Assembly (NCBI RefSeq): GCF_012927165.1
Contig: NZ_JABBGA010000025.1
Coordinates: forward strand, 1-64,000
Source of the DNA: Zoogloea dura
Lineage (GTDB): Bacteria > Pseudomonadota > Gammaproteobacteria > Burkholderiales > Rhodocyclaceae
DNA: 64,000 nucleotides
Direction of reading: 5' to 3'
The notes under the pieces were generated by a model. It ran no database searches. It was given only the letters and a program-made list of their open reading frames with translations, and had not been told where the DNA came from. Positions 39,585 through 57,560 of the stretch are shown in pieces (position 1 is the first letter of the stretch; each line of letters opens with the position of its first letter). The position numbers and the translations under genes were made by a program.

Positions 39585-39621
39585 GCCGACCAGCCAAGGC
39601 ACAAACGAGCACGCCACCTCC

Positions 39622-40756: not shown

Positions 40757-40805
40757 GGGCGGCGGATCCTCGCTGCGGGGCGCCACGCAGCACCTGCGGA
40801 AATCG

Positions 40806-40849
40806 AAAAAAGACGGATGCCGGGGCGCGAAGGATCGCCCCGGCATCCG
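40806..40849 (-). terminator. Terminator of the apc operon
   Basis: A perfect 14-bp inverted repeat CGGATGCCGGGGCG / CGCCCCGGCATCCG with an eight-base loop (40814-40849) is followed on the minus strand by TCTTTTTT. It lies six bases downstream of the apcE stop. Confidence 0.9.
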
Positions 40850-40855
40850 CCAGGC

Positions 40856-41719
40856 CTAGGCTCTCAGACGAGCCAGGCTTTCCAGGACAAACTCGGGCCG
40901 CTGGTTGGCCGGCACTTCGGCGAAGTAGAACTGCCCTTGCGCCAGGGCCGGCAGCGCCTCGCCGGCCCACAGGGGCAGGCTCACATCCACCCCTGTGGAG
41001 ACCGGCGGGGCCGCCGTCACATCACGGCTCAGCACCGCATCGAACTCGCCCAGCACGGGCGATTCGAGCACCCCGCTGCTGCGCGGGCGCAGCGCCAGGG
41101 ACCAGCGGTAGTGGTGGGCCACGTTGATCAGCGGACGGTAGCGCTCCAGGTCGGTCTCGCCCATCTGCGCATCGTCCGGGTGCTCTTCCAGCAGCACCCC
41201 GCCCACCGGGCTGGCCGACACCGAGCGGAGCAGGTCGGCCATGTACATGGCGGCGTCCTCGATCCCGTCCGGGTCCAGCTCCACGTCGCTGCGCCCGGCC
41301 AGCTGGTTGGCATGCAGCAGCCAGTGCTTGGGCGAGGGCATGGCCAGCACCAGCGGGGTCTGGCCGCGCAGGTTGGCGATCACCGCCTCCACCACTTCGG
41401 CCAGCAGCTGGCGCGGGCCTTCCAGCTCCAGCAGGCGGCGCAGCGGGTAGGACAGGCGCCGCTTGGCGCCCAGCTCGGCACGCAGCTCCGGATGGCGGGC
41501 GAGCCAGGCATCGAAGAGCTCGCCGACTTCCACCACGGCCACGTCGGGACGCAGCAGCCCCTGGGCCTGGGAGAACCAGGCCAGGAACTGGGCGGCGCCC
41601 AGCCACGGGTCGCCCCCCTCCCCCAACAGCAGGCGGCGGGTATAGGCCGAGGACTTCAGCCACACCCGGAGCCCGCTGCCGCCCTTGCCGGGCAGGCTGT
41701 CGGCGAGGCTCTGGCTCAT
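40856..41719 (-). CDS. apcE: Acetophenone-carboxylase-type subunit E
   Basis: A 287-residue protein with no recognised catalytic motif, beginning MSQSLADSLPGKGGSGLRVW. It overlaps apcD by four bases and is the last gene of the operon, as ApcE is in Aromatoleum aromaticum. In that system the ABCD core complex needs the separate E subunit for activity. Size (about 32 kDa) and position fit. The assignment rests on synteny. Confidence 0.75.
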   Translation of the reverse strand: MSQSLADSLPGKGGSGLRVWLKSSAYTRRLLLGEGGDPWLGAAQFLAWFSQAQGLLRPDVAVVEVGELFDAWLARHPELRAELGAKRRLSYPLRRLLELEGPRQLLAEVVEAVIANLRGQTPLVLAMPSPKHWLLHANQLAGRSDVELDPDGIEDAAMYMADLLRSVSASPVGGVLLEEHPDDAQMGETDLERYRPLINVAHHYRWSLALRPRSSGVLESPVLGEFDAVLSRDVTAAPPVSTGVDVSLPLWAGEALPALAQGQFYFAEVPANQRPEFVLESLARLRA

Positions 41720-43992
41720 TGCTTTTCACCTCCCATGGCGCCCATGGCCAGCAGACGGCTTTCCAGCTCGGCGATGCGCACGTCCTTCGGATGGGGCATG
41801 TAGTTGGGGCGCGGCGCGTTGGCGTCGCGGAACTTGTCGGGGCTGCCCATGTAGAGCTTGGCCACGTCGTCGCCCCAGCAGCCGAAGTACTGCAGGTGGG
41901 TCGGCGGGGTCGGCTTGTTCCAGCCCTTGATGAACTCGGCATAGGGCACGCCACGGGCGATACGGGCCTTGCGCTCGGCATCGCGGGCCGCCGCGGTGGC
42001 CTCGTGGTTGACCGCCAGGGTGTCCGGATCGAACTTGACCTTGTAGAGGCGCTCGGCCACGCCCGGCGACATCAGGCCTTCCTCGATGTCGCGGATCACG
42101 CCGGCCGGGTCGCGCTCCAGCAGGTCGCCGTAACCGGCGCCCGCGCCCTGGGAGATCATGAACAGCTCGCCGCGCTTGGAGATCTCGAAGCCCATGCCCA
42201 TGTGGTGGGTGGTGTAGGTGGCCTCCTCGAAGGGCCGCTCGTTCATGATCTCCTCGATGGAGTGCTTGAACTTGTGCGGTTCGTTGAGGAGCACGTCATA
42301 CACATCCACGCCCTGCACCTTGCACAGGGGGTAGGAGCCGCAGGCGTAGCCGCCGAAGAGGCCTTGCAGGGGCGGGAACTTGGCGCCCTGGCAGACCGTC
42401 ATGAAGCCCCACTGCTCGCTGTCCTTGGTGGCCACCATCATGGTGTAGCCCTGGCCGCCACGGTACTTGCCCGGGGCGATGGCGTCGCGGGTCATCTTCT
42501 TGGAGACGAGCTGCAGGAAGGGCACCTCCTCCTCGTTGAGCTCCTGCTCGCCGATGTCGGCCATGGTGGCGAAGATCGGCGCCAGGGCGTGCTCGCCGTC
42601 GCGGTCGACAGTGGCGCCGGCGCCCATGCCGTTGAGGTCGGCGCACAGGTTGCCCAGCGTCTCGCCGTGCTGGCTGACCCCACCCCAGATGAAGGTGTTG
42701 ATCATGTTGAAGGTGGGCGCATGCACCTTGGTGTACTTCTCCGGGCAGCTGTACAGGAACTTGGCGACAGCGTGCTGGCCGGCGGTGAAGCCGGTGAAGA
42801 TGGACATCAGGCTCTGGGAGTTGGGCGCGTCGTAGGAGCAATTGACGATCGAGTGAGGATCGGTGATCACCTCGATCGGCGCGAAGGCGGCCTGGCCGCG
42901 CGGCAGGTCGGGCCACACGTAGCACAGGAAGACCTGGGCCAGCATGCCCTTGAGGCCGGCCACGATGGTGTTGGTGGCGCGGTTGGTGAATTCCGGGCTG
43001 GAGCCGCGGAAGTCGAAGATCAGCCGGTCGCCCGTCTTGGTGAGCTTGCAGTTGATCTTCACCACGCAGTTCTCGCGCAGGGTCGAGTCCTGGATGATGT
43101 AGGTGCGCACCGTCATGTCGGGCCATTCGCTGACCCGCCGCTTGACCTCGGCACGCACGTTTTCCATGGTGGTGCGCAGGGTCGAGATGAGCGCCTCGGG
43201 GCCGTCGGTGTTGAGCGTTTCCTCGATGCGCTGCTTGATGCGCAGGCAGGCGAACAGCTTGACCTTCATGTCTTCGTACTGGAGCTTGGGCTCGCGCACG
43301 GAGTTCTGCAGGAAGGTCAGGATGTCGCGCTTGATCTGGTAGTTCTCGACCACCTTGAACGGGCACATCTTGAGGCCTTCGTCGCAGGGGCTCTCGGCCA
43401 TCGACGGCATGCCGCCCGGCTCGATGGCGCCGTTCTCGCCCTCATGCACCGTGGAGGCCACCCAGCACACCAGCTTGCCCTTGTGGAAGATGGGCAGGAT
43501 CATCGACTGGTCGGTGTTGTGCACGTTACCGTAGCGGGAGTCGTTGTGGATGAAGCCGTCGCCTTCATTCACGCCCACGGTGGGGTCGTTCACCCAGTTC
43601 TTGATGATGAACTTGATCGGGTGGTGCACCAGGGCCGAGAAGATCAGCACCCCGCCGGCGCTGGCGATGGCCAGATCGCCCGAGGCGGAGTACACCCCGG
43701 TGATCACGTCGCCCCACTTGGCGCCGGGGGCGGCGCCCATCTGTTCGACCATCTCGTAGCCTTCGTCGCAGCCCGCCTGGATGCGGTCGCGGATCTTGGC
43801 GATGGTGTGGGCGTCGCCCACCTTGCGCATGCATTCGTCCTCGACCTCGCTGCGCGGCATCAGGTCGTGGTTCTGCATGATCTCCGGGTCGGGCCCGAGG
43901 AACAGGGTGGTGTCGTTGAGGAACTTCTTGATCAGCGCCACTTCCTCGGGGCTCGGCAGCTTGGCCGCTACCGGCGTATTCATTTCGCTCAT
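41716..43992 (-). CDS. apcD: Acetophenone-carboxylase-type subunit D (HyuB/AcxB-like)
   Basis: A 758-residue hydantoinase-B-type protein, related to the acetone carboxylase alpha subunit. Recognisable regions are GDGFIHNDSRYGNVHNTDQSMI, NCKLTKTGDRLIFDFRGSS, SIVNCSYDAPNSQSLMS and KYRGGQGYTMMV. The HyuB-type subunit carries out the carboxylation half-reaction. Start at 43992 follows an AGGA; an upstream TTG is unlikely. The letters C and D follow position. Confidence 0.85.
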   Translation of the reverse strand: MSEMNTPVAAKLPSPEEVALIKKFLNDTTLFLGPDPEIMQNHDLMPRSEVEDECMRKVGDAHTIAKIRDRIQAGCDEGYEMVEQMGAAPGAKWGDVITGVYSASGDLAIASAGGVLIFSALVHHPIKFIIKNWVNDPTVGVNEGDGFIHNDSRYGNVHNTDQSMILPIFHKGKLVCWVASTVHEGENGAIEPGGMPSMAESPCDEGLKMCPFKVVENYQIKRDILTFLQNSVREPKLQYEDMKVKLFACLRIKQRIEETLNTDGPEALISTLRTTMENVRAEVKRRVSEWPDMTVRTYIIQDSTLRENCVVKINCKLTKTGDRLIFDFRGSSPEFTNRATNTIVAGLKGMLAQVFLCYVWPDLPRGQAAFAPIEVITDPHSIVNCSYDAPNSQSLMSIFTGFTAGQHAVAKFLYSCPEKYTKVHAPTFNMINTFIWGGVSQHGETLGNLCADLNGMGAGATVDRDGEHALAPIFATMADIGEQELNEEEVPFLQLVSKKMTRDAIAPGKYRGGQGYTMMVATKDSEQWGFMTVCQGAKFPPLQGLFGGYACGSYPLCKVQGVDVYDVLLNEPHKFKHSIEEIMNERPFEEATYTTHHMGMGFEISKRGELFMISQGAGAGYGDLLERDPAGVIRDIEEGLMSPGVAERLYKVKFDPDTLAVNHEATAAARDAERKARIARGVPYAEFIKGWNKPTPPTHLQYFGCWGDDVAKLYMGSPDKFRDANAPRPNYMPHPKDVRIAELESRLLAMGAMGGEKQ

Positions 43993-44038
43993 TTTCAATC
44001 CTGTCGTCTATGTGGGTTGAATCGGTCCGCCGCGGCGC

Positions 44039-46174
44039 TCAGGCACGCAGGAACCAGGACGCGCCCTGCTTGGCCGCCACGAAGTTCCAGCCCGGGTTAA
44101 CCAGGAAGGTGGTGACTTCGGAGGCGATGATCGCGGGCCCCGGGATCTGCACGCCCGGCTCGATGGCGGCGCGGCTCCACACCGGCGTCTCGAAGGAGCC
44201 CTCGTGGCCGACGAACCAGCACTTGCGGGTGCTGCTGGGCGCCGGCGGGTTCTTGCGCTGCTCGACGGGCACCGGCTTGATGTCCTCGAACTGCACGGTC
44301 TCGTGGCGCACGTAGGCGGCCACCCGGATGGTGTTGATGCGGATGCCTGCCTCCGGTGCCTGGGAGCCCTCGCCGAAGCGCTTGCCGTAGTCGTTGGAGA
44401 ACTGGGAGATCATCGCCAGCACATCGGTGGGGCCATGCAGCTCGTGCTTGGGGATCACCGCGGTGGTCTGCACCAGCTGGTTGCCATAGCGCATGTCCAG
44501 CTCGAGGTTGTGGCAGATGTCTTCCTTGGCGATGCCCTGGCGCAGCAGATCCTGGGTGCCCTGCTCCTTGAGCTCGGCGACGATGCTGTTGAAGCGGGTG
44601 TAGTCGTCGAAGATGTGCCGGGTGTTGGAGTCGTACAGCACCATGTACAGCGACTGCTCGTGGATGTGCAGCTGGTGCATGTTGCCGGCCCCCACCGCGG
44701 AGAACACCGAGCTGAGCGGCGGCGCCAGGATCTTGTCGATGGACAGGTTCTGGGCGATGCCGCAGCAGTGCAGCGGGCCGTTGCCGCCATAGGCCAGCAT
44801 GGTGAAGTCCTTGGGGTCGTAGCCGCGCGCCCGCAGTTCGGTGAACAGGCCGTTGGCCATGTTGTCATCCACCTTCTCGCGGATCAGCAGGGCGGCTTCG
44901 ATCACCGAGCAGTCCAGGTCGTCGCACAGGGCGTCCTCGATGGCCGCCGAGGCGCGCCGCGGGTTGAGGGGGATCGAACCGCCGGCGTAGTTCTTGGCGT
45001 CCAGGTAGCCCAGCAGCAGGTCGGCGTCGGTCACCGTCGGCTTCATGCCGCCGCGGTCGTAGCAGGCCGGGCCGGGGTCGGAGCCGGCGGATTCGGGGCC
45101 GCACTTGACGGTGTCGTACATGCGGTCGTAGCTCGCCACCGAGCCGCCACCCGCGCCCAGGGTGACCAGGTGCACCATCGGCACCGACACCAGCCAGCGG
45201 TCGATCACCGGGTTGAAGTCGTAGTGCTTGATGCCGCCATCCACCACGATGCCGATGTCGTAGCTGGTGCCGCCCATGTCGGTGGCGACCACGTTGCCGA
45301 GGCCGGCCTGCATGGCCAGGTGCTCGGAGGCGCCGATGCCGGACACCGGGCCGGAGTGGATGGTCTGCAGCGCATCGGTGGAGTTGAGCTGGGCCATGCC
45401 GCCGGAGTTGTGGATGACCAGCATCGGCTTCTCGTAGCGGTGGGCGCGCAGGTTCTGCTCGAGGGCCGACAGGGCGTGGTACATGGTGCTGTGCAGGTAG
45501 CCGTCGACGATGGCCGAGGTGGCCCGCACGTACTCGCCCTTGCGGCCGGCCACCTGGTGGGACAGGATCACCGGGATCGCGCCGAGCAGGTGGGAGGGAT
45601 ATTCCTCCAGCAGGATCTCCTCGATGCGCTGCTCATGGTCCGGATTGACCACCGCATTCACCAGGGCCACCACGATGATCTCGGCGCCCCGGTCCACCAG
45701 CTCGCGGATCTGGCTGCGCACGTCGTCCTCGTCCAGGGGCATCACCAGCTTGCCCTGGAAGTCCACCCGCTCGCGCACGCCGCGGATCATGTGGGGCAGC
45801 ACCAGGGGGTCGGGACGCTGGGCGTTGGGCATGTCCTGCTGGCCCAGGTTGTCAAGGCCTTCGCCGTAGCCGCGGGCCCGGGACAGGGGCACGGTGGCTT
45901 CGAAACCGGCCGTCACCAGCATGCCGATCTTGGGGCCCTTGTGCTCGATCAGGGCGTTGGTGCCCAGGGTGGTGGCGTAGCGCACCGAATCCACTTCGGA
46001 CAGGATCTTCTCCAGATCCAGGTCCAGCACATGGCAGGCCTTGCCGAGGGCCTCGTTGAAGCCGAGGGCCAGGTTGTGATGGGTGGTCAGGGCCTTGGCT
46101 TCGATGTATTTGCCATCCCAGACCACGAAACAATCGGTGAAGGTCCCACCGATATCGACGGATACACGCCTCAT
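44039..46174 (-). CDS. apcC: Acetophenone-carboxylase-type subunit C (HyuA/AcxA-like)
   Basis: A 711-residue hydantoinase-A-type protein with ASKHA-fold ATPase motifs: N-terminal RVSVDIGGTFTDCFVVW and VVATDMGGTSYDIGIVVDGG. Such subunits use ATP to phosphorylate a substrate, enolate or bicarbonate. It resembles the acetone carboxylase beta subunit in length. A GAGGAG ribosome site precedes the ATG. It lies 97 nt after apcB and 46 nt before apcD. Confidence 0.86.
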   Translation of the reverse strand: MRRVSVDIGGTFTDCFVVWDGKYIEAKALTTHHNLALGFNEALGKACHVLDLDLEKILSEVDSVRYATTLGTNALIEHKGPKIGMLVTAGFEATVPLSRARGYGEGLDNLGQQDMPNAQRPDPLVLPHMIRGVRERVDFQGKLVMPLDEDDVRSQIRELVDRGAEIIVVALVNAVVNPDHEQRIEEILLEEYPSHLLGAIPVILSHQVAGRKGEYVRATSAIVDGYLHSTMYHALSALEQNLRAHRYEKPMLVIHNSGGMAQLNSTDALQTIHSGPVSGIGASEHLAMQAGLGNVVATDMGGTSYDIGIVVDGGIKHYDFNPVIDRWLVSVPMVHLVTLGAGGGSVASYDRMYDTVKCGPESAGSDPGPACYDRGGMKPTVTDADLLLGYLDAKNYAGGSIPLNPRRASAAIEDALCDDLDCSVIEAALLIREKVDDNMANGLFTELRARGYDPKDFTMLAYGGNGPLHCCGIAQNLSIDKILAPPLSSVFSAVGAGNMHQLHIHEQSLYMVLYDSNTRHIFDDYTRFNSIVAELKEQGTQDLLRQGIAKEDICHNLELDMRYGNQLVQTTAVIPKHELHGPTDVLAMISQFSNDYGKRFGEGSQAPEAGIRINTIRVAAYVRHETVQFEDIKPVPVEQRKNPPAPSSTRKCWFVGHEGSFETPVWSRAAIEPGVQIPGPAIIASEVTTFLVNPGWNFVAAKQGASWFLRA

Positions 46175-46271: not shown

Positions 46272-46670
46272 TCAGTGCCCGTGGCCCTTGTCGGCGGTCA
46301 CCGCGGGGCCGACCACCGCTTCCTTGACCTCTTCGCGCCGGGCCCACTGGGCGCGCAGCGCCGGCAGGTCGGGCTCCATGTCATGGAGGGGCGGGTGGCC
46401 GGGGACGGCGTATTCGGTTTCCACCTGGGTGCCGCAATGGGGGCAGTAGTACTCGAGGATGCGCACCCATTCCGGATCGGGGCTGAAGGTGAACCGGTAC
46501 TTCTCCGGATCGATGATGGGCGGGTGGATCTCCCGCGGATCCCGGTTGTGCACCAGCATCCCTTCCTTGTAGCTCTTGCCCGCCGAGCCGATGACGTGGT
46601 CGCAGACGCGGCATTCCCACTGTTCCGCATCCAGGTCGATGCGCAGGTATTCGGTCATCAGTACTTTCAT
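46272..46670 (-). CDS. apcB: Acetophenone-carboxylase-type small subunit B (zinc ribbon)
   Basis: A 132-residue protein (about 15 kDa) with four Cys arranged as C20-x2-C23 and C76-x2-C79 (ECRVCDHV and YYCPHCGTQVETEY), a zinc-ribbon like that of the acetone carboxylase gamma subunit. It is only five bases after the apcA stop. The fit of size, Cys pattern and position is good. Confidence 0.84.
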   Translation of the reverse strand: MKVLMTEYLRIDLDAEQWECRVCDHVIGSAGKSYKEGMLVHNRDPREIHPPIIDPEKYRFTFSPDPEWVRILEYYCPHCGTQVETEYAVPGHPPLHDMEPDLPALRAQWARREEVKEAVVGPAVTADKGHGH

Positions 46671-46675
46671 TTTTC

Positions 46676-48613
46676 TCAGGCCTTTCTGTTGAGCAGGATG
46701 TCGCCCGCGTCGCTGATGACGAAACTCCAGCCATCCAGCACCCGGCAGGTGAAATAGTCTTCTTCGAGGATTGCCGGCCCGGCGGCGTGGTCGCCCGGAT
46801 TGAGCTGGGCGAGGCGATAGACCGGCACGTCGATGCGGCCCTGACCGCGGGTCAGCACGTTGCGGGTGCCGTCGGCCTGGGCCGGCTGGCCCTGGACGAA
46901 GCTCGCCTTCTTGTCGCCGGCCCGGCGCAGGGACTTGACCGCGCGCAGCTCCAGCTCGACGGACTTGACGCTGGCCAGCTCGGCCGGGAAGGCGGTGCTG
47001 TCGCCGAGGGGCAGCACGCGGTCTGCGGCGCCATCGACTTCACCGACCAGCCAGGCCTCGACCTCGTATTCGCCCGGCCCGAAGCCTTCGGCGAACATGT
47101 CGCGGGAGGCCTTGACCTTGAGGTTCTCCAGCGCAGCCGCCAGGGCTGCATCGCTGCGCTCTTCGAGGACCAGCGCATAGCGCTGCGAGATGTCGCAGGC
47201 GCCGATGCCGAAGGCGCTGAACACCGCCGCCAGCTTGGGCACCGCCACCCGGTCGATGCCGGCCTTCTCGGCCACGCCGCAGGCGTTGAGGGGGCCGGCG
47301 CCGCCGAAGGCGAGCATCACGGTGTCCTTGGAGAGCTTGGTGAAGCGGTGCAGCTCGACCGCGATCTTGTCCTCGTAGGCGTGTTCCATCTGCAGCAGCG
47401 CATCGTCGAGGCTGATGCCCAGGGGCTGGGCGATGGCCAGGGACACGGCGGTGGCCGCCCGGTCCAGGTCGAGGCCCATGCCGCCGCCGAAGAAGGACTT
47501 GGGATCGAAGAGGCCGGACAGCAGGCTGGCGTCGGTGATGGTGGCTTCCTTGCCGCCACGGCCGAAGCAGGCGGGGCCGGGCACCGCGCCCACGCTCTCG
47601 GGGCCGATCACGATGCGCTTGTTCACCACCTTGAAGATGGAGCTGCCGCCGGCACCCGCGCTCATGATCTCGCACAGGGGGAAGGACACGCTGATGCCTT
47701 CCACGTGGCCGCGCTGCACCTCGGCGACCTTGCCGTCCAGGCACTGGCCGATGTCGGTGGTGGTGCCGCCCACGTCGATGGCCACCACGTCGGGCATGTT
47801 GTACAGGCGGGCGAAGGTCTTCATGCCCTCCATGCCGCCGCGCGGGCCGGAGCTGTAGGTCTTGATCGCCACGGTCTTGGCCACCCGGGAGGCGTCGCCA
47901 TCGTTGCGGAAGATCAGCAGCGGGTTCTTGGTGCGGTAGTCGCGCAGGCGGTTTTCCGCATTGAACAGGAAGGCCTCCATGGCCGGGTGCAGGAAGGAGT
48001 TGATCAGCGCCGTCCAGGTGCGGCGGACCACGTCCCGGTCGGTGGTCAGGTCGCTGCCGTAGAGCACCGGCACGGCGCCCAGCAGGTGGCGCGGGTACTT
48101 GCGCAGCACGACCTTCTTGAAACGGGTCTCCAGGTCGAGGAACTCCCCGCCGCCGAAACTCACCACCAGGCGGTTGGCACCGGCCGCGGTGAGCTGGTTG
48201 ATGGCCTTGACCACCTCGATGTCGGCCTCTGCGCCGGTCACCGCCGCGGTGTCGAGGAAGACCACCCGGTCACCGACCAGGGCCTCGAAGACCTCCGGAT
48301 CATGCTCGGCCAGGCGCACCGGCAGGTCACGGGCCTTGGCGTCGATGATCAGGCCCAGGCGCGGCCCCTTGCGCTCACAGATGGCGTTGGTGCCCTGGGT
48401 GGTGGAATAGCGGATCAGGTCCACCTCCTCCAGCAGGCGCGCCACGTTCTGCTCGCCGTAGATCACCCCCGACGCTTTTTGCAGCCCTTCGAAAAAGCAT
48501 TTGCTCAAGTCGTAGGGCGTGGTCAACACCTTCGTCTTCTTGACGGTGTCGTCCATGATGATGCAGATATCGGTGAGCGTCCCACCGTTATCGATGTTGA
48601 TTTGCAATGCCAT
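46676..48613 (-). CDS. apcA: Acetophenone-carboxylase-type subunit A (HyuA-like)
   Basis: A 645-residue HyuA-type subunit of about 70 kDa with ATP-fold motifs INIDNGGTLTDICIIMDDTVKK and VVAIDVGGTTTDIGQCLDG. It shares its fold with apcC but is shorter and diverged; the presence of two HyuA-like subunits separates this operon from acetone carboxylase, which has one. An AGGAGG sits just upstream of the ATG, and a sigma54 promoter lies about 120 nt upstream. First gene of apcABCDE. Confidence 0.85.
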   Translation of the reverse strand: MALQINIDNGGTLTDICIIMDDTVKKTKVLTTPYDLSKCFFEGLQKASGVIYGEQNVARLLEEVDLIRYSTTQGTNAICERKGPRLGLIIDAKARDLPVRLAEHDPEVFEALVGDRVVFLDTAAVTGAEADIEVVKAINQLTAAGANRLVVSFGGGEFLDLETRFKKVVLRKYPRHLLGAVPVLYGSDLTTDRDVVRRTWTALINSFLHPAMEAFLFNAENRLRDYRTKNPLLIFRNDGDASRVAKTVAIKTYSSGPRGGMEGMKTFARLYNMPDVVAIDVGGTTTDIGQCLDGKVAEVQRGHVEGISVSFPLCEIMSAGAGGSSIFKVVNKRIVIGPESVGAVPGPACFGRGGKEATITDASLLSGLFDPKSFFGGGMGLDLDRAATAVSLAIAQPLGISLDDALLQMEHAYEDKIAVELHRFTKLSKDTVMLAFGGAGPLNACGVAEKAGIDRVAVPKLAAVFSAFGIGACDISQRYALVLEERSDAALAAALENLKVKASRDMFAEGFGPGEYEVEAWLVGEVDGAADRVLPLGDSTAFPAELASVKSVELELRAVKSLRRAGDKKASFVQGQPAQADGTRNVLTRGQGRIDVPVYRLAQLNPGDHAAGPAILEEDYFTCRVLDGWSFVISDAGDILLNRKA

Positions 48614-48732: not shown

Positions 48733-48747
48733 GCAAGCAGCGTGCCA
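48733..48747 (-). promoter_or_regulatory. sigma54 promoter of apcABCDE
   Basis: The minus strand reads TGGCAC-GCTGC-TTGC, a perfect match to the -24/-12 consensus with GG and GC ten bases apart. It gives a leader of about 110 nt to apcA. Confidence 0.88.
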
Positions 48748-48851
48748 GCGGAAAGAGAGAATTGATAAACAGCCAACCAATTGATTTTATTTGATTAAAA
48801 ATAAAATCAACAAACCCGTGAATTAATCTCCCGTTTTCCTTCCGGATACCC

Positions 48852-48907
48852 GTCCGGATTCCGGTTGAAATAATGCAACGCAACATCGAACGCCCGGACC
48901 GTCCGGA
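48852..48907. promoter_or_regulatory. Candidate upstream activator sites for apcA promoter
   Basis: Two GTCCGGA half-sites at 48852-48858 and 48901-48907 lie about 105-160 nt upstream of the sigma54 promoter. The second is part of a CCGTCC-GGA-GGACGG palindrome. The same half-site flanks the other three sigma54 promoters of this region. Confidence 0.5.
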
Positions 48908-48964
48908 GGACGGACGCTCTGCATTTCGGGATGAAATAAGGCGGAAAGGGCTTTCAGAAATGGA

Positions 48965-48988
48965 CAGGGGCGGCTTCCGCCGCCCCTG
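48965..48988 (-). terminator. Hairpin after the sigma54 activator gene
   Basis: A perfect ten-base inverted repeat CAGGGGCGGC / GCCGCCCCTG with a TTCC loop follows the regulator stop by about 28 nt on the minus strand. The downstream T-run is poor, so termination may be partial and some regulator mRNA could extend toward apcA. Confidence 0.6.
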
Positions 48989-49015
48989 CATCCCCCAGAA
49001 AAGCCGTCCGGGCAA

Positions 49016-51046
<2,031 letters not shown>

Positions 51047-51367
51047 CCTCCTTTGGTTGTAGGCCCGACCAGGTCATCGCGGCATACCCTGCCGCCCGCC
51101 CGGTTCTGTCTTTCTGCGGAGCCCCGGCGGACGGCTCAAAGGCCGTTTACCCCCGGGGCTTCATTCCTTGCGCCGCCATTCCGGCGACGCGGGCAATCCC
51201 GTGTCTCGGCGGGATTACCCTTGCCACGGCCGGGTGCCAGACAAGGGCACCGCGCACCGGTCGGCCTGCCCCGGGATGCAGGGCAGGCACGCAACATCTT
51301 CATTTTGGACCATCCCTCCCGGGAACGCGCGACGTAAATGGAACTGCAAAGCCGGCAGGGTGATTTA
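51047..51367. other. Long leader of the activator gene, no gene seen
   Basis: If the sigma54 element at 51368-51382 is used, this is a 5' leader of about 310 nt. It has no plausible reading frame with a ribosome site and is moderately GC-rich. A second, sigma70 promoter closer to the ATG cannot be excluded. Confidence 0.4.
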
Positions 51368-51382
51368 GCACTCTTTGTGCCA
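51368..51382 (-). promoter_or_regulatory. Probable sigma54 promoter upstream of the activator
   Basis: The minus strand reads TGGCAC-AAAGA-GTGC with ten bases between GG and GC. It differs from consensus at one -12 position, so it may be weaker than its three neighbours. It points to autoregulation of the activator. Confidence 0.6.
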
Positions 51383-51467
51383 GTGCGCTGCCACACATGC
51401 TCATGCGCCCTGGCACGGGCGATCCGGTGACAGGGCGCGGGGAGAAACAAGCGAAAAAGGCGGGTTC

Positions 51468-51508
51468 CGTTCGATTTCCGGACGCAGCGACCGTCCGGAA
51501 ATCGAACG
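51468..51508. promoter_or_regulatory. 16-bp perfect inverted repeat, likely enhancer site
   Basis: CGTTCGATTTCCGGAC (51468-51483) and GTCCGGAAATCGAACG (51493-51508) are perfect reverse complements with a nine-base spacer. The repeat includes two GTCCGGA half-sites in opposite orientation and lies 85-125 nt upstream of the -24/-12 element, a typical place for an activator of this class. Confidence 0.75.
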
Positions 51509-51593
51509 ACAGGAATAAAAAAAACGGGGGCTTCCAGAAACAGAGGTTTCCGAGGAGAGAGAGGGATTCCTCACTGGATGATGCCCTGCCCCC

Positions 51594-51624
51594 AAAAAGC
51601 CGGTGCCCGAAGGAGGGGCTCACC
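51594..51624 (-). terminator. Terminator of the CoA-transferase operon
   Basis: On the minus strand CCGGTGAGCCC and GGGCACCGG pair with a small bulge and are followed by CTTTTTGG. It starts directly after the subunit B stop at 51627. Confidence 0.8.
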
Positions 51625-51626
51625 GG

Positions 51627-52262
51627 TTATTGCAGCGCCACGAGAAACTCCGCTTCAGTGTTGTTGCGCACCTCGTCGAGGGTGACGTCCGGCGCCAGGT
51701 CCACCAGGGCCAGCCCTTCCGGACGCAGCTCGAAGACACACAGGTCGGTCACGATCATGTTCACCACGCCGGCGCCGGTGAGGGGCAGGGAGCACTCGCG
51801 GACGATCTTCGCCTCGCCCTTGGCGGTGTGCTCCATGATCACCACGACGCGGCCGACGCCGGCCACTAGGTCCATCGCGCCACCAATGCCCTTGACCATC
51901 TTGCCGGGCACCGCCCAGTTGGCCAGATCGCCCTTTTCCGACACCTGCAGCGCCCCCAGCATGGACAGCTGGATGTGGCCGCCGCGGATCATGCCGAAGG
52001 AGGCGGCGCTGTCGAAGAAGCTGGTGGTCGGCAGGGTGGTGATGGTCTGCTTGCCGGCATTGATGAGGTCGGCGTCCTCCTCGCCCTCCCACGGGAAGGG
52101 GCCCATGCCGAGCATGCCGTTCTCGCTCTGCAACTGGATCGACATGCCCGGCGGCACATGGTTGGCGACCAGGGTCGGAATGCCGATCCCGAGGTTCACG
52201 TAATAGCCGTCGCGCAGCTCGCGGGCGGCGCGGGCCGCCATCTGGTCACGGGTCCAGGCCAT
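51627..52262 (-). CDS. 3-oxoacid CoA-transferase subunit B
   Basis: A 211-residue class I CoA-transferase beta subunit. The catalytic Glu lies in the QSENGMLGMGP motif, and NLGIGIPTLVANHVP and GAMDLVAGVGRVVVIMEH are typical of ScoB/AtoA/PcaJ. With subunit A it would transfer CoA from succinyl-CoA or acetyl-CoA to a 3-oxoacid. The genes are three bases apart. Confidence 0.92.
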   Translation of the reverse strand: MAWTRDQMAARAARELRDGYYVNLGIGIPTLVANHVPPGMSIQLQSENGMLGMGPFPWEGEEDADLINAGKQTITTLPTTSFFDSAASFGMIRGGHIQLSMLGALQVSEKGDLANWAVPGKMVKGIGGAMDLVAGVGRVVVIMEHTAKGEAKIVRECSLPLTGAGVVNMIVTDLCVFELRPEGLALVDLAPDVTLDEVRNNTEAEFLVALQ

Positions 52263-52265
52263 CTC

Positions 52266-52988
52266 TCATTCCTCCACGGTGGCGGCGCGACGACGGACGG
52301 TGCGCTGCTCGATGCGTTTATCGACGACATCCAGGCGGACGATGCGGTCCACGAAGATGCCCGGGGTGATGATGTGGTCCGGATCGATCTGCCCCGGCTC
52401 GAGCAAGTGCTCGACTTCGGCGACGGTCAGGTCGGCAGCGGAGGCCATCATCGGATTGAAGTTGCGGGCGGTCATGCGATAGACCAGGTTGCCCTCGCTG
52501 TCGCCCTGCCAGGCATGGACCAGGGCCAGGTCGGCACGCAGGCCGCGCTCCATCAGGTAGGTCTTGCCGTCGAACTCGGCCAGCGGCTTGCCTTCGGCGA
52601 TCACGGTGCCCACCCCGGTGCGCGTGTAGAAGGCCGGAATGCCGGCGCCCCCGGCGCGGATGCGTTCGGCCAGGGTCCCCTGGGGGTTGAACTCCACCTC
52701 CACCTCACCGGCCAGGAACTGGCGGGCAAATTGGGCGTTCTCGCCGGCATAGGAGCAGATCAGCTTGCGCACCTGACGGGTCGCGAACAGCTTGCCCAGG
52801 CCCAGGCCCTCCGCCCCCGGATTGTTGGAGATGAGGGTCAGCCCCTTCACGCCGGATTCGAGCACCACGTCGATCAGCGCCGAAGGAATGCCGCAGACCC
52901 CGAAACCACCCGACATGATGGTCATGTCGTCACGCAATACGCCGGCCAGCGCCGCGGCCGCCGTCGAATGGATCTTTCTCACAGACAC
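52266..52988 (-). CDS. 3-oxoacid CoA-transferase subunit A
   Basis: A 240-residue alpha subunit with GGFGVCGIPSALIDVVLESG, NNPGAEGLGLGKL and EGKPLAEFDGKTYLMERGLRADLALVHAWQGD. The start is GTG at 52988, preceded by GAGAGGA. It is driven by its own sigma54 promoter about 95 nt upstream and so belongs to the same regulon as apc. Confidence 0.92.
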   Translation of the reverse strand: MSVRKIHSTAAAALAGVLRDDMTIMSGGFGVCGIPSALIDVVLESGVKGLTLISNNPGAEGLGLGKLFATRQVRKLICSYAGENAQFARQFLAGEVEVEFNPQGTLAERIRAGGAGIPAFYTRTGVGTVIAEGKPLAEFDGKTYLMERGLRADLALVHAWQGDSEGNLVYRMTARNFNPMMASAADLTVAEVEHLLEPGQIDPDHIITPGIFVDRIVRLDVVDKRIEQRTVRRRAATVEE

Positions 52989-53081
52989 CTTGCGTCCTCT
53001 CTATTCCAGAAATAGCCCCATGTGGCGGGAATACCGTGATCCCGCCTGCGGGCAAACGGCCATTCCACGGCAGGCTATTCA

Positions 53082-53096
53082 GCAAGAGGGGTGCCA
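53082..53096 (-). promoter_or_regulatory. sigma54 promoter of the CoA-transferase genes
   Basis: The minus strand reads TGGCAC-CCCTC-TTGC, a perfect consensus with ten bases between GG and GC. Confidence 0.88.
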
Positions 53097-53161
53097 GCAA
53101 AAACAAGACGCTGATTTAAAAGGAATACATTCCCAAAAGAGTGTATTGCTGACGGAATACC

Positions 53162-53200
53162 GTCCGGATGACGGCCATAGGCTGGCCCCCGTCGTCCGGA
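53162..53200. promoter_or_regulatory. Candidate activator sites for the CoA-transferase promoter
   Basis: GTCCGGA half-sites at 53162-53168 and 53194-53200 lie about 65-105 nt upstream of the -24/-12 element and just after the acyl-CoA ligase stop. Confidence 0.5.
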
Positions 53201-53243
53201 ATCCGGGCGGCGCAACCCGGACTCCCGAACAAGGGCCGGCAGC

Positions 53244-54773
53244 CTATTCCCGCAACAGCGCCCGCAATTCCGTCTTGAGGACCTTGCCGTAATTGTTCTT
53301 CGGCAGGGCGGCCACGAAACGGTATTCCTTGGGACGCTTGAAGCGGGCGATATGGGCCAGACAATGCTGGTCCAGCGCCTCGGCACCCAGAGCTCCGTGA
53401 CCGTCCTCGAGCACCACGAAGGCCACCACGGACTCCCCCCATTCCGCGTCGCGACGCCCGATCACCGACACCTCGCGCACCGCCGGGTGGGCGATCAGCG
53501 CCTCCTCCACCTCCCGCGGGTAGATGTTGGAGCCACCGGAGATGATGACGTCCTTGGAGCGGTCGCGCAGGGTCACGAAACCATGGGAATCCATCGAGCC
53601 CAGGTCGCCGGTCCACAGCCAGCCATCGCGCAGGGCGCTGGCCGTGGCCGCCGGATTGCGCCAGTAGCCGGCCATCACCGTGTCGCCGCGCACCACCACC
53701 TCGCCCACCTCGTCGTTGGCCAGGGGCTGGCCTTCGGGGTCGACGATGCGCACCTCCACCAGGGCCTGGGCCACCCCCACCGACCCGACCCATGCCGCCC
53801 AGGCCGCCTCGCTGCGGTCGGCCAGCACGCTGCGGGACAGGGCCGTGATGGTCATCGGCGATTCGCCCTGGCCGTAGATCTGCACGAAGCGCGGCCCCAT
53901 GCTGTCGAGGGCGGCACGGATGTCGTCGGCGTACATCGGGCCGCCGCCGTAGATGATGGTCTGGAAGCCGGAGGGATCGGCCTTCTCCGCCCTCACCCGG
54001 TCCACCAGCCGGCGCACCATGGTGGGCGCCGCAAACAGGCACAGACGCCCGACCCGGCGGGACAGGTGGAGCAGCTCCTCGGGCTCGAAACCGCCCGACG
54101 CGGGGATCACGTGGCGACAGCCCCGCAGCACGTAGGGGAAGCTGTACAGGCCGGCGCCGTGGGACATGGGTGCCGCGTAGACCACCGCGTCGTCCGCGTG
54201 CACCGGATCCACATCCATGAAGAAGCAGGCCGTCATGGCCTGCAGGTTGCGATGGCTGAGCATCACGCCCTTGGGCTGGCCGGTGGTGCCCGAGGTGTAG
54301 AACAGCCAAGCCAGGTCGTCCGGGGCGCGGTCCTGCACCGGGATCGCCAGGGCCGACACGGCGCGCAGGTAATGGCCGTCGCCGGGCACCAGCAGGGGCA
54401 CGGGCGCCGCGCCTTCGGTGAGGGCCGGGGCCAGCCCGCCGGCGAGTTCCGCCGACACGCAGACCAGCCGGGCCTCGGCGTTGCCGATGATCCAGGCCGC
54501 CTCGCGGGGGTGCAGCTTGGCGTTGATGGGCACCACCACCAACCCCGCCCACAGCACGCCATACAGGCACTCCATGTACTCCGGCGTATTGCCCATGAAG
54601 ATCGCCACCCGCGCCCCGGGCTCGAGGCCCAGGTTGTGGCGCAGGTAGCCGGCCAGCCGCGCGGACCGGGCGGCCAGGGCCGCGTAGGTGTGCATGCAGC
54701 GCTCGCCGACCAGCAGCGCCGGACGCTCCGGGAAGCTGCGGGCGGAACGGGCGAGGATGTGGGCCAGATTCAT
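53244..54773 (-). CDS. AMP-forming acyl-CoA ligase
   Basis: A 509-residue adenylate-forming enzyme with the P-loop-like LFYTSGTTGQPKGVMLSH, the YGQGESPMT core, the TGDLGSMDSHGF hinge region and C-terminal Lys (PKNNYGKVLK) that is needed for adenylation. It could activate the carboxylation product (benzoylacetate in the acetophenone route) to its CoA ester, as Bal does in A. aromaticum. The start at 54773 overlaps the thiolase stop; the longer frame enters that gene. Confidence 0.88.
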   Translation of the reverse strand: MNLAHILARSARSFPERPALLVGERCMHTYAALAARSARLAGYLRHNLGLEPGARVAIFMGNTPEYMECLYGVLWAGLVVVPINAKLHPREAAWIIGNAEARLVCVSAELAGGLAPALTEGAAPVPLLVPGDGHYLRAVSALAIPVQDRAPDDLAWLFYTSGTTGQPKGVMLSHRNLQAMTACFFMDVDPVHADDAVVYAAPMSHGAGLYSFPYVLRGCRHVIPASGGFEPEELLHLSRRVGRLCLFAAPTMVRRLVDRVRAEKADPSGFQTIIYGGGPMYADDIRAALDSMGPRFVQIYGQGESPMTITALSRSVLADRSEAAWAAWVGSVGVAQALVEVRIVDPEGQPLANDEVGEVVVRGDTVMAGYWRNPAATASALRDGWLWTGDLGSMDSHGFVTLRDRSKDVIISGGSNIYPREVEEALIAHPAVREVSVIGRRDAEWGESVVAFVVLEDGHGALGAEALDQHCLAHIARFKRPKEYRFVAALPKNNYGKVLKTELRALLRE

Positions 54774-55936
54774 TTCGCTCTCTCCAGGATGCTCACGTAG
54801 TTGGCCACGGCAGCGCCCCCCATGTTGAAGACGCCGCCGAGGCGGGGGCTGTCCACCTGCATGTCGCCGGCCTCCCCGGCCAGTTGCATCGCCGCCAGCA
54901 CGTGCATCGACACCCCGGTGGCACCGATGGGATGGCCCTTGGCCTTGAGGCCGCCGGACAGATTGACCGGCAGGGCTCCGCCAGGCAGCACCGTGCCGTC
55001 GGCCAGGCGGTCGGCGCCCCGCCCCGGCCGGGCCAGGCCCATCGCCTCGTAGGTCAGCAGCTCGGCAATGGTGAAGCAATCATGCACTTCGGCAAAGGAC
55101 AGGTCGGTGACGCGGCAGCCGGCATCGGTCAGGGCCGTCCCCCAGGCCCGCCGCGGCCCCTCGAAGCTCAGCACGTCGCGCCGGGAGATCGGCAGAAAGT
55201 CATTCACCTGGGCCCGCGCCCGGAAACGGATGGCCCGCACCGCCCGGGCCAGCAGGGACTCGTCGGCCAGCACCAGGGCAGCCGCCCCGTCGGAGACCAG
55301 GGAGCAGTCGGTCTTGCGCAGGGGCCCGGCGATGCGCGGATTGCGCTCGGAGACCGTATTGCAGAACTCAAAGCCCAGGTCGCGGCGCATCTGGGCCCAG
55401 GGGTTGCGGGTGCCGTTGGCGTGGTTCTTGGCGGCGATCCGGGCCAGGGTGGAGGCGTGATCGCCGTAGGCATCGAAGTAGGCCTGGGCCAGATCGCCGA
55501 ACAGGCCCGGGAAGCTCATGCCGCAGGCGGCTTCTTCCTTCACATAGGACGCCGACCCCAGGATACGGGTCACCTCGGGCCCGGAGACTCCGGTCATCTT
55601 CTCGGCCCCCACCACCAGGGCCAGACCGGCACGGCCCGACTCGATGGCGTCGCAGGCCGCGAACACCGCCGCCGCCCCCGAGGCGCAGGCGTTCTCGACC
55701 CGGGTGGCCGGGCACCAGCGCAGCCGCTGATCGGCCTGCAGGACCAGTGAAGAACAGAAGATCTCCGGCACGAAGCCACCGTTGAGCTGACCCAGCCAGA
55801 TCCCGTCCACCTCGGCCCCGTCCACCTGCGCATGGGCCAGGGCGTCGCGGCTCACCTGCACGATCAGGTCTTCCAGCGACAGGCCGTCCAGCCGTCCGAA
55901 GGGCGAATGAGCCCAGCCGATGGTGCATACCCCCAT
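54770..55936 (-). CDS. SCP2/acetyl-CoA-acetyltransferase-type thiolase
   Basis: A 388-residue thiolase of the SCP-x/PaaJ-distant branch. The nucleophile Cys is in VENACASGAAAVFAACDAI, and the His motif is GHPIGATG. The C-terminal Cys-Gly motif of classical thiolases is replaced by FNMGGAAVANYV. It likely cleaves a 3-oxoacyl-CoA with CoA, in the acetophenone case to benzoyl-CoA and acetyl-CoA. GGAGA precedes the ATG. It and the ligase share one sigma54 promoter. Confidence 0.85.
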   Translation of the reverse strand: MGVCTIGWAHSPFGRLDGLSLEDLIVQVSRDALAHAQVDGAEVDGIWLGQLNGGFVPEIFCSSLVLQADQRLRWCPATRVENACASGAAAVFAACDAIESGRAGLALVVGAEKMTGVSGPEVTRILGSASYVKEEAACGMSFPGLFGDLAQAYFDAYGDHASTLARIAAKNHANGTRNPWAQMRRDLGFEFCNTVSERNPRIAGPLRKTDCSLVSDGAAALVLADESLLARAVRAIRFRARAQVNDFLPISRRDVLSFEGPRRAWGTALTDAGCRVTDLSFAEVHDCFTIAELLTYEAMGLARPGRGADRLADGTVLPGGALPVNLSGGLKAKGHPIGATGVSMHVLAAMQLAGEAGDMQVDSPRLGGVFNMGGAAVANYVSILERAK

Positions 55937-55999
55937 GTTGTCTCCTTCTCTTTGCTTGTCGGGTGATGGCCCGCGGCAGCGGGCCCCGCAGGGGACATG

Positions 56000-56014
56000 G
56001 CAAGGGGCATGCCA
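56000..56014 (-). promoter_or_regulatory. sigma54 promoter of the thiolase-ligase genes
   Basis: The minus strand reads TGGCAT-GCCCC-TTGC with ten bases between GG and GC, giving a leader of about 55 nt. Because the element is nearly palindromic it also reads as a weak -24/-12 in the plus direction toward the GTPase gene. A TCCGGAC half-site is at 56096-56102. The rest of 55937-56285 has no gene. Confidence 0.8.
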
Positions 56015-56285
56015 TCAGGCCCGCGGGACGACGACACCGTCAAGCTCCTGAATAGGTGTCGGCCCGACCGGTGGAGCGCGTGCCGCAGATCGGTTTCCGG
56101 ACACCCGCTCACCCGCCATCGACCGCTTCCCGGACAGGCATGCCGCCACCTCCGACCGCCCATCCCGGCAGACACGCGGCCCGCCGGCCGGCCCACCGCC
56201 GTGGCACGACCCTTGCCAGCATCCAGGCCTGCCGGCGGCACGCGGTGCTGCACGCACGGCCCGACAAGAACGACAGGAGACACCC

Positions 56286-57560
56286 ATGAACACACCGCTC
56301 CCCGTGGACCGCATTCCGGTCAGCGTACTCACCGGCTTTCTAGGCGCCGGCAAGACCACCCTCCTCAACGCCCTGATGGGCGACCCGGCCATGGCCGGCA
56401 CCGCCCTGCTGATCAACGAGTTCGGCGCGGTGGGCGTCGACCACCACCTGGTCGAGAAGATCGACGAGAGCACCCTGCTGCTCGATTCGGGCTGCATTTG
56501 CTGCAGCGTGCAGGGCGACCTGGTCAAGGCCCTCAAGACCCTGCACCAGCGCAACGCCCGCCGGGAGATCCCGCCGCTGCGCAGGGTCGTCATCGAGACC
56601 ACCGGCCTGGCCGACCCGGTGCCGGTGGTCTACACGCTGATGGAGGAACGCTTCGTCTCCGCCCGCTACGTCTGCGACGGCGTGCTGACGGCGGTGGACT
56701 GCACCCACGCAGAAGCCCAGCTCGACGGCCACCGGGAGGCGGTACGCCAGGTGGCCCTGGCCGACCGCCTGCTGCTGACCAAGACCGACCTCGCCGACTC
56801 CGCCGCGCTGGCCCGCCTGGAGGCGCGCCTGCAGGCCCTCAACCCCGGCGCGCCGCGCATCCCGGTGCGCCATGGCCGGATCGCCCCGGCCCAACTGTTC
56901 GGCAGCGGCCTGTACGCGGATGGCCAGCGCACGGCCGGCAAGCTCCCCGACGTGGCCGCCTGGCTCGGCGAGGAGAAGGCCCGCCACGCCCCCGCCGAAC
57001 CCTTCACCAGTCCGGGTGCCGGCACCTCGCCCTGGCGCCCCGTCGGCGCAGCGGCGCCCCGCGCCCTCGCCGCCGGGCGCCACGAGGACGGCGTATCGAG
57101 CTTCGTGGTGGAGTTCGACGCCCCCGTGCCCTGGTTCGGCTTCGCCCTCGCCCTCGGGCGCATCCTGCAGGCCCACGGCCCGCAACTGCTGCGCGTGAAG
57201 GGCCTGCTGGCGGTGGCCGGCGAGGCGCTGCCGCGGGTCATCCAGTGTGTCCAGGAAGTGGCCTACCCGAGCCTGACCCTGCCGGCCTGGCCGGCCGACG
57301 GCAGCTTCGCCGATCACCGCGGGCGGCTGGTCTTCATCGTCCGCGACCTGCCCGAGGCAGCGGCGGCGGCGATCCGCGCCAGCCTCGCGGCCCTGCCCGG
57401 CGACCCGGCGGCGATCCGGGCCAGCGCCTCCAGCCCGGGCCTGCCCACCCGCTGCTGGTTCAACGAGCGGATCGCCGTCACCGGCACCGGCCTGCCACAG
57501 CTCGACGGCTGGGTCATCCAGTCTCCCCGCTTCAGCCGCCGCAACGGCGCAGCCGCCTGA
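56286..57560 (+). CDS. COG0523 (CobW/P47K) metal-chaperone GTPase
   Basis: A 424-residue G3E GTPase. Walker A is GFLGAGKTT (17-25), the metal-binding CxCC motif is GCICC (69-73), followed by ETTGLADP and the NKxD-type motif TKTD. The C-terminal CobW_C domain is present with an Ala/Pro-rich linker. Members deliver Zn, Fe or Co to target enzymes. It is divergent from the thiolase operon and 2.8 kb from the iron-dependent amidohydrolase genes; a role for that enzyme or for the Apc proteins is possible. Confidence 0.88.

What the first reader, a model, noticed from the sequence alone, without database searches (positions are those of the whole stretch)
48733..56014. Four sigma54 promoters with a common upstream half-site define one ketone-catabolism regulon
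TGGCAC/T-N5-TTGC elements with exact GG-N10-GC spacing occur upstream of apcA (48733), the CoA-transferase genes (53082) and the thiolase-ligase genes (56000), with a one-mismatch version upstream of the AcoR-type activator (51368). GTCCGGA half-sites sit about 65-160 nt upstream of each. This suggests the activator controls all transcription units, including itself. A 7-mer alone is expected several times in GC-rich DNA, so position is the key evidence.
Basis: partly seen in the sequence, partly recalled or inferred. Interest (0 to 1): 0.82.

Follow-up and report, generated by a model that had tools for sequence, protein, structure and literature searches.

The report
Sigma-54 ketone-carboxylase regulon with shared operator
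Six promoters around a bacterial gene cluster for breaking down an unknown ketone appear to be switched on together, through one shared 17-letter DNA mark, by a regulator encoded in the middle of the cluster; the kind of system is known, but the mark and the full set of promoters look new.

Summary
The window holds five perfect TGGCAY-N5-TTGC sites (0.38 expected), not three, plus the one-mismatch site before the activator. Two were unlisted: 56202 (+), before a CobW-type GTPase gene, and 38706 (-), before YCF48/MMPL/DUF1302/DUF1329 genes. GTCCGGA is part of a 17-bp palindrome, CGTYCG-N5-CGRACG, found de novo in 46 related upstream regions. It outscores all 44 other sigma54-like promoters of the genome and is predicted across clades. 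With at most one mismatch the full consensus occurs at four places in 5.83 Mb, three of them here. Sought alone in 199 family genomes, it occurs in 28: in 13 directly before a homologue of this activator, in 3 before acetone-carboxylase-like genes, in 10 with no such neighbour seen. Best reading: a GAF-AAA+-Fis activator of the AcxR/AcoR kind switches on itself, an acetophenone-carboxylase-like ketone carboxylase, CoA-transferase, thiolase/ligase, CobW and an envelope/transport set. Binding, sigma54 dependence and the ketone are inferred. Known kind; operator and six-promoter set are the new part.

The parts
49016..51046 (-). sigma54 activator, AcxR/AcoR-like: GAF, AAA+ with GSFTGA loop, Fis-type HTH (an ATG at 51040 follows the GTG at 51046 and may be the true start)
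   Evidence: Pfam GAF 81-217, Sigma54_activat 353-519, HTH_8 622-662; sequence
48733..48747 (-). P1, sigma54 promoter of the apc operon
   Evidence: perfect match; 29 of 36 sequences (window plus 35 loci) have such a match 60-290 nt before apcA
48851..48867 (-). P1 operator, proximal
   Evidence: matrix score 19.2, centre -112
48900..48916 (-). P1 operator, distal
   Evidence: score 13.4, centre -161
48774..48786 (-). IHF-like site between operator and P1
   Evidence: 0 mismatches to WATCAANNNNTTR (consensus recalled)
51368..51382 (-). P2, sigma54-like promoter of the activator gene, -12 box GTGC
   Evidence: one mismatch; similar elements with ATGC/GTGC in Zoogloea and Xanthobacter loci
51468..51484 (-). 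P2 operator, proximal
   Evidence: score 22.2; exact consensus
51492..51508 (-). P2 operator, distal; the two form a 41-bp inverted repeat with perfect 17-bp arms and a 7-bp loop
   Evidence: score 22.2; both arms change together in L005
53082..53096 (-). P3, sigma54 promoter of the CoA-transferase genes
   Evidence: perfect match
53193..53209 (-). P3 operator, main
   Evidence: score 19.5, centre -105
53161..53177 (-). P3 operator, weak, 32 bp nearer
   Evidence: score 10.9
56000..56014 (-). P4, sigma54 promoter of thiolase and ligase
   Evidence: perfect match
56202..56216 (+).
   Evidence: perfect match; 13 of 36 sequences have a perfect promoter before cobW
56087..56103 (.). operator shared by P4 and P5
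   Evidence: score 15.5; centre -81 to P4, -107 to P5
56120..56136 (.). second operator shared by P4 and P5, 33 bp away
   Evidence: score 10.6
38692..38706 (-).
   Evidence: perfect match; 8 of 36 sequences have a perfect promoter before the YCF48 gene
38825..38841 (-). P6 operator, weak
   Evidence: score 13.1, centre -127
38735..38747 (+). IHF-like site between operator and P6
   Evidence: 0 mismatches (consensus recalled)
46676..48613 (-). apcA-like, carboxylase alpha'
   Evidence: PDB 5l9w_b E 3.8e-91; NCBIfam ApcA 354 bits, cut-off 1250
46272..46670 (-). apcB-like, carboxylase gamma
   Evidence: 130.6 bits, cut-off 250
44039..46174 (-). apcC-like, carboxylase alpha
   Evidence: 572.5 bits, cut-off 1500
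41716..43998 (-). apcD-like, carboxylase beta
   Evidence: 321.5 bits, cut-off 1500
40856..41719 (-). apcE-like fifth gene, 287 aa
   Evidence: ORF; named by position only, no family search run
52266..52988 (-). 3-oxoacid CoA-transferase subunit A
   Evidence: TIGR02429 over cut-off
51627..52262 (-). 3-oxoacid CoA-transferase subunit B
   Evidence: TIGR02428 over cut-off
54770..55936 (-). thiolase
   Evidence: NF005704 over cut-off
53244..54776 (-). AMP-forming acyl-CoA ligase
   Evidence: Pfam AMP-binding
56286..57560 (+). CobW-type G3E GTPase
   Evidence: Pfam cobW and CobW_C; homologue in 27 of 35 related loci
37446..38462 (-). YCF48-like protein
   Evidence: Pfam PSII_BNR
34998..37382 (-). 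MMPL-family RND transporter
   Evidence: Pfam MMPL
33357..34907 (-). DUF1302 protein
   Evidence: Pfam
32024..33334 (-). DUF1329 protein
   Evidence: Pfam

Best explanation
The activator encoded at 49016-51046 senses a ketone or a metabolite of it through its GAF region, binds 17-bp inverted repeats (CGTYCG-N5-CGRACG), usually in pairs, some 50-165 nt upstream of -24/-12 elements, and by ATP-driven remodelling of sigma54 polymerase turns on six transcription units. These are the ketone carboxylase operon, the activator itself, the CoA-transferase pair, thiolase plus ligase, the divergent CobW GTPase, and a YCF48/MMPL/DUF1302/DUF1329 set. The likely route is ketone, carboxylation to a 3-oxoacid, CoA ester, then thiolysis. 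Shown by sequence: the promoters, the operator, their conservation and their link to activator genes. Inferred: binding by this protein, sigma54 dependence, the ligand, the enzyme chemistry.
For: Promoters: 5 perfect against 0.38 expected; 49 in the 5.83-Mb genome against 10 for the reversed pattern. Operator: palindrome found without a preset motif in 46 upstream regions, log-likelihood 315 against 25-37 in six shuffles and 56 in the 44 control promoters. Best operator per window promoter 13.1-22.2 bits against a control maximum of 7.5. A matrix trained on 32 regions that I grouped as Rhodocyclales separates 14 regions of other taxa from the controls, AUC 0.935, p 5.8e-7. Consensus with up to one mismatch: 4 places in the genome, 3 in the window; the fourth appears to lie in coding DNA. 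Family scan with the palindrome alone: 28 of 199 genomes hold it. In 13 it lies within 500 nt upstream of an activator homologue (54-100% identity), 9 of these in clusters that are not apc clusters; in 3 before an acetone-carboxylase-like alpha gene; in 1 before cobW; in 1 about 1.7 kb from an activator gene; 14 genomes have a perfect sigma54 element next to it. The genome has one rpoN match, and the next-best full-length activator homologue is 43% identical. No site above 12 bits in L026 and L027 (nearest activator homologue at most 34% identical) or in L024 (none in view).
Against: No wet-lab data. P2 has a non-consensus -12 box, and one-mismatch sites in general are at chance level. P6's operators are weak (13.1, 7.7 and 6.9 bits). 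L013, L023 and L029 have an operator before apcA but no sigma54-like element with at most one mismatch near it; the same holds for operators before the activator gene in L004, L011, L012, L023, L028 and L029; L007, L009, L010 and L034 show no operator above 12 bits directly before their activator genes. L002, L003, L006, L015 and L019 have operators but no full-length activator gene in the fetched flank. One of the 14 cross-clade regions scores 3.8 and one -2.3. In 10 of the 28 family genomes no fitting neighbour was seen (7 of these read only over 3 kb). A strict joint operator-promoter pattern found 0 of 399 genomes of the order, the window's own included.
Confidence: 0.83

Rival explanations
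1. The promoters are sigma54-dependent, but the palindrome is bound by another protein (a different enhancer-binding paralogue or a local repressor), and the activator controls only some units.
For: The genome has 20 stretches similar to the activator at E below 1e-60, itself included, the best full-length paralogue at 43%. Operators occur in L002, L003, L006, L015 and L019 without a full-length activator gene in the fetched flank.
Against: In a scan that used only the palindrome, 13 of 28 positive genomes have it directly before an activator homologue; none of the 44 other sigma54-like promoters of the genome scores above 7.5 bits.
Confidence: 0.12
2. The inverted repeats are terminators or REP-like repeats, and the half-site match is a by-product of GC-rich repeats.
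For: The 51468-51508 repeat could form a hairpin and changes symmetrically in L005. A dispersed CGTTCGC-N3-GCGAACG repeat exists in the genome.
Against: The dispersed repeat has a different spacer (C-N3-G, not R-WWW-Y). Operators sit at similar distances upstream of sigma54 elements across clades, and a separate hairpin with a T run follows the CoA-transferase genes (my reading).
Confidence: 0.03
3. P6 and P5 are sigma54 promoters of other regulons that happen to lie nearby; the true regulon is the reader's four units.
For: P6 operators are weak.
Against: P5 shares its operators with P4. A perfect promoter precedes cobW in 13 and the YCF48 gene in 8 of 36 sequences, with GTCCGG/CCGGAC pairs at nearly the same positions in L016 and L032 as in the window.
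Confidence: 0.15

Closest known systems
AcxR-acxABC acetone carboxylase systems (Xanthobacter Py2, Cupriavidus metallidurans; PMC2864759, passages read)
   Same: sigma54 activator next to a ketone carboxylase operon; a TGGCATGNNNNTTGC promoter is reported there; in family genomes, activators beside clusters with the acx gene order are 54-57% identical to this one where full length and have the same operator
   Different: here a four- to five-gene apc-type carboxylase, six promoters, CobW and transport genes; the passages read describe no operator; AcxR itself was not compared with this protein
Acetophenone carboxylase ApcABCDE of Aromatoleum aromaticum EbN1 (PMC5214803, passages read)
   Same: same gene order alpha', gamma, alpha, beta, plus a fifth gene
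   Different: the four core subunits fall far below the NCBIfam equivalog cut-offs, so the substrate is probably not acetophenone
EtpR of A. aromaticum (PMC4630880, abstract start in a listing and one passage seen)
   Same: predicted sigma54 regulator of an aryl-ketone pathway
   Different: acts on p-ethylphenol/p-hydroxyacetophenone genes; no sequence comparison made
NtrC-type enhancer sites (recalled, no call)
   Same: 6-5-6 inverted repeat geometry, paired sites upstream of -24/-12
   Different: different half-site sequence; no receiver domain among the Pfam hits here

Membership tests
sigma54 enhancer-binding proteins, AcoR/AcxR architecture | GAF sensor, AAA+ sigma54 interaction domain, Fis-type HTH | tested here: met
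   all three Pfam domains over cut-off
sigma54 enhancer-binding proteins, AcoR/AcxR architecture | intact GAFTGA loop and Walker motifs | tested here: met
   GSFTGA (A to S; GAFTGA in many orthologues), [16 protein letters not shown]
sigma54 enhancer-binding proteins, AcoR/AcxR architecture | activates transcription with sigma54 on a ketone signal | not testable with these tools
   no experiment
AcxR, the acetone carboxylase activator itself | closest sequence match to characterised AcxR proteins | not tested
   no AcxR sequence was compared
sigma54-dependent promoters | GG-N10-GC with TGGCAY/TTGC boxes, above chance | tested here: met
   5 perfect, 0.38 expected; P2 is a one-mismatch site and not above chance by pattern
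sigma54-dependent promoters | enhancer site upstream | tested here: met
   operators listed in parts have centres at -73 to -161
acetophenone carboxylase (NCBIfam ApcA-D equivalogs) | score above the equivalog cut-off | tested here: not met
   354/1250, 130.6/250, 572.5/1500, 321.5/1500 bits
hydantoinase/ketone carboxylase superfamily | Hydantoinase_A and Hydantoinase_B domains | tested here: met
   Pfam
PhaR operator | TGCRNYGCASMA upstream of apcA more often than at control promoters | tested here: inconclusive
   24 of 35 against 14 of 44 with up to one mismatch, Fisher p 0.001, but loci are related; in the window one mismatch

The most novel reading that the evidence does not exclude
CGTYCG-N5-CGRACG is the common operator of a whole clade of ketone-sensing sigma54 activators, spanning acetone-type and acetophenone-type carboxylases in beta-, alpha- and gammaproteobacteria. 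In the apc branch this regulon carries a dedicated CobW GTPase that metallates the carboxylase, plus an envelope transport set. (Lowered from 0.40 to 0.35 on recheck: PMC10865871 reports that two acetone carboxylases take up their metal without chaperones.)
Probability: 0.35. Interest if true: 0.6.

Novelty: new member of a known kind. Interest (0 to 1): 0.45.

Why it matters
It turns a vague half-site into an exact operator that predicts binding, autoregulation and target genes, and links clusters of the acetone- and acetophenone-carboxylase type under one recognition code. It also ties a CobW GTPase of unknown role to a ketone carboxylase; whether that enzyme needs a metal chaperone is open, since two acetone carboxylases were reported to need none (PMC10865871, passages read). 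The promoters could serve as ketone sensors.

Tried and rejected
An expectation-maximisation run with a GC-rich fixed background found only AT-rich or undefined motifs; a background taken from the sequences found the palindrome at widths 19 and 21, while the limited seeds at the other widths settled on weaker motifs; with more seeds all six widths from 13 to 23 gave it or its core. CCGGAC-N0-25-GTCCGG in the genome is not enriched (49 places, reversed-pattern control 335): the pair of half-sites alone is not the signal. CGTYCG-N5-CGRACG with a free spacer mostly hits another repeat family among the listed places; restricting the spacer removes it. A strict joint pattern in 399 genomes of the order gave 0 matches; it needs an exact operator 60-90 nt from an exact promoter, which the window itself lacks, so it says little beyond rarity. 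The PhaR idea was kept only as a side note: background matches are common (14 of 44 controls). In one search and later, 64 promoter regions plus P2 were cut to 46 by dropping near-duplicates and shared regions. Papers: seven library searches; I saw no mention of this operator in the listings, but one search had 777 papers of which 12 were listed, and only passages of five papers were read (PMC4630880, PMC6201568, PMC5214803, PMC2864759, PMC10865871). The query called apcE in my scripts (40864-41718) was out of frame, so its rows should be ignored; the query names d1329 and d1302 were swapped (Pfam is right). Of the 28 family loci, 19 were extended (17 with a promoter, activator or other window-protein homologue in view, 2 without), plus a second site of one further listed genome (G110), 20 regions in all; the window's own locus was not extended again.
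Full report
What was checked. The four sites named in the finding are present at the stated places, on the minus strand. The exact pattern TGGCAY-N5-TTGC occurs five times in the window against 0.38 expected, and 49 times in the 5.83-Mb genome against 10 for the reversed pattern. The two sites not listed in the finding are 56202-56216 (+), 84 nt before a CobW-type GTPase gene, and 38692-38706 (-), before genes for a YCF48-like protein, an MMPL transporter, a DUF1302 and a DUF1329 protein. With one mismatch allowed, the window is not enriched (13 against 10.9), so the activator's promoter needs other support.

Half-sites against other promoters. I fetched the surroundings of the 44 other perfect matches in the genome. 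At -40 to -180, 0 of 44 have two CCGGAC/GTCCGG and 3 of 44 have one; the 5 window promoters each have at least two. Of 258 tiles of 140 nt in the first 36 kb of the window, 0.8% have two or more.

The real unit. ApcA-like genes with flanks of up to 10 kb were collected from 35 loci: Zoogloea, Aromatoleum, Azoarcus, Methyloversatilis, Cupriavidus, Xanthobacter, Acidocella, Gemmobacter, Geobacter, Novosphingobium, Acinetobacter and others. A perfect sigma54 element lies 60-290 nt before apcA in 29 of 36 sequences, the window included; L030 has no upstream DNA, and L013, L023, L024, L027, L029 and L031 lack such a match. De novo search of 46 upstream regions, near-duplicates removed, gave a palindrome CGTCCG-N5-CGGACG with an A/T-rich spacer. 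Log-likelihood was 315 at width 19, against 25-37 for six shuffles and 56 for the 44 control promoters; a search without the symmetry constraint gave the same motif. The finding's GTCCGGA is one arm plus the first spacer bases. In the window the best operator of each promoter scores 19.2 (P1), 22.2 twice (P2), 19.5 (P3), 15.5 (P4 and P5, shared) and 13.1 (P6); the control maximum is 7.5. Weaker hits between 6 and 8 bits also occur at P3 and P6 and were not counted as parts.

Independent tests. A matrix trained on 32 regions grouped as Rhodocyclales separates 14 regions from other taxa from the controls (AUC 0.935, p 5.8e-7; control maximum 8.4); one of the 14 (L022 apcA) scores 3.8 and one (L026, Geobacter) scores -2.3. 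No sites above 12 bits are found in L026 and L027, whose nearest activator homologue is at most 34% identical, or in L024, where none is in view; L030, which has no upstream DNA, also has none. The consensus CGTYCGRWWWYCGRACG with up to one mismatch occurs at 4 places in the genome, 3 of them operators here; the fourth appears to lie in coding DNA (my reading, no gene search).

Family scan with the palindrome alone. The exact consensus was sought in 199 genomes of the family, with no reference to any gene; 28 have it. ApcA relatives at 72% identity or more are in 10 of the 199. Twenty regions were extended and compared with the window's proteins. In 13 genomes, the own one included, the palindrome lies within 500 nt upstream of an activator homologue (54-100% identity); 4 of these are apc clusters (G000, G060, G086, G106) and 9 are not. 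In 3 it precedes a Hydantoinase_A-type gene 28-29% identical to apcC, with a perfect sigma54 element between (G039, G191, G096). I call these acetone-carboxylase-like because the gene order alpha, beta, gamma is that given for acxABC in PMC5214803 where the contig is long enough; no acetone carboxylase model was matched. In 1 genome the palindrome precedes a cobW homologue near a contig end (G030), and in 1 it lies about 1.7 kb from an activator gene (G028). In the remaining 10 no such neighbour was seen, though 7 of these were read only over 3 kb. A perfect sigma54 element follows the palindrome in 14 genomes, one of them (G134) before a porin gene with no activator in view. So the operator serves other pathways too.

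Autoregulation. The two operators before the activator form a 41-bp inverted repeat whose arms change together in L005. The element TGGCAC-N5-[GA]TGC recurs before the activator gene in L001, L005, L016, L032 and L035, and a TGGCAY-N5-ATGC element lies 72-106 nt from operators before the activator gene in six Xanthobacter loci (L014, L018, L020, L022, L025, L033). Against this: operators before the activator gene in L004, L011, L012, L023, L028 and L029 have no element with at most one mismatch, and L007, L009, L010 and L034 have no operator above 12 bits there. The odd -12 box is common but not universal in the apc branch: G060, an apc cluster, has TTGC, as do the six activator promoters of acx-like clusters. 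That the odd box limits self-activation is my inference.

Other promoter parts. A perfect IHF consensus (WATCAANNNNTTR, recalled) lies between operator and promoter in P1 and P6, and in 16 of 64 promoters, related ones included, against 0.2 expected from shuffles; P3 has one mismatch, and P2, P4 and P5 have two or three.

Protein and pathway. The activator has GAF, AAA+ and Fis HTH domains and intact motifs. The alpha' gene product matches the solved acetophenone carboxylase (5l9w), but the four core subunits miss the NCBIfam equivalog cut-offs. With a 3-oxoacid CoA-transferase, a thiolase and an acyl-CoA ligase, carboxylation of a ketone followed by activation and thiolysis is the natural reading. 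The ketone is unknown.

Comparison with the literature. AcxR of Cupriavidus metallidurans and Xanthobacter is described as a sigma54 activator of acxABC, with a TGGCATGNNNNTTGC promoter in the acxR-acxA gap (PMC2864759, passages read). The kind of system is therefore known. In seven library searches I saw no report of this operator, but listings show only titles and the starts of abstracts, one search listed 12 of 777 papers, and most subscription journals are not held.

Verdict. It is a well-supported prediction of a known kind of regulon with a newly defined operator.

Noticed in passing
window 48874-48883 (-): TTGCGTTGCA between the two P1 operators resembles the PhaR site TGCRNYGCASMA (PMC6201568, passages) and elements near three of six phasin genes of this genome; similar sites in 24 of 35 apcA upstream regions against 14 of 44 controls. 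Possible link to PHB storage; one phaR-type gene is present.
   Followed up: partly
window 56286-57560: A CobW-type G3E GTPase gene accompanies the carboxylase in 27 of 35 loci, including Geobacter and Acinetobacter: candidate metal-delivery partner, though two acetone carboxylases are reported to need no chaperone.
   Followed up: partly
window 38975-39603: Nested inverted repeats (arms 93, 90 and 71 nt), with CGTTCGC-N3-GCGAACG-like units about 362 nt apart; similar pairs recur elsewhere in the genome: looks like a dispersed element.
   Followed up: partly
window 39610-39870: Degenerate tandem units around CATCCANCCCTGGACAAAAT next to that element (seen).
   Followed up: no
window 39983-40846 (-): A ZIP-like membrane protein ORF (my reading of the sequence, no family search) between the carboxylase genes and P6: possibly metal uptake for the carboxylase.
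   Followed up: no
L123 (G134:C9:10000-26000), 8135-8264: Exact operator plus perfect sigma54 element before a porin gene, with a gene similar to MFS transporters on the other side and no homologue of the window's proteins found in 16 kb: another possible regulon type.
   Followed up: no
L035 (Zoogloea MAG contig): A second copy of the cluster, matched in split pieces, in the same MAG as L032; may be an assembly artefact.
   Followed up: no
window 59112-61400 (-): Gene with an N,N-dimethylformamidase beta-subunit-like domain (PF20254) next to a gene similar to amidases at 61758-63197.
   Followed up: no
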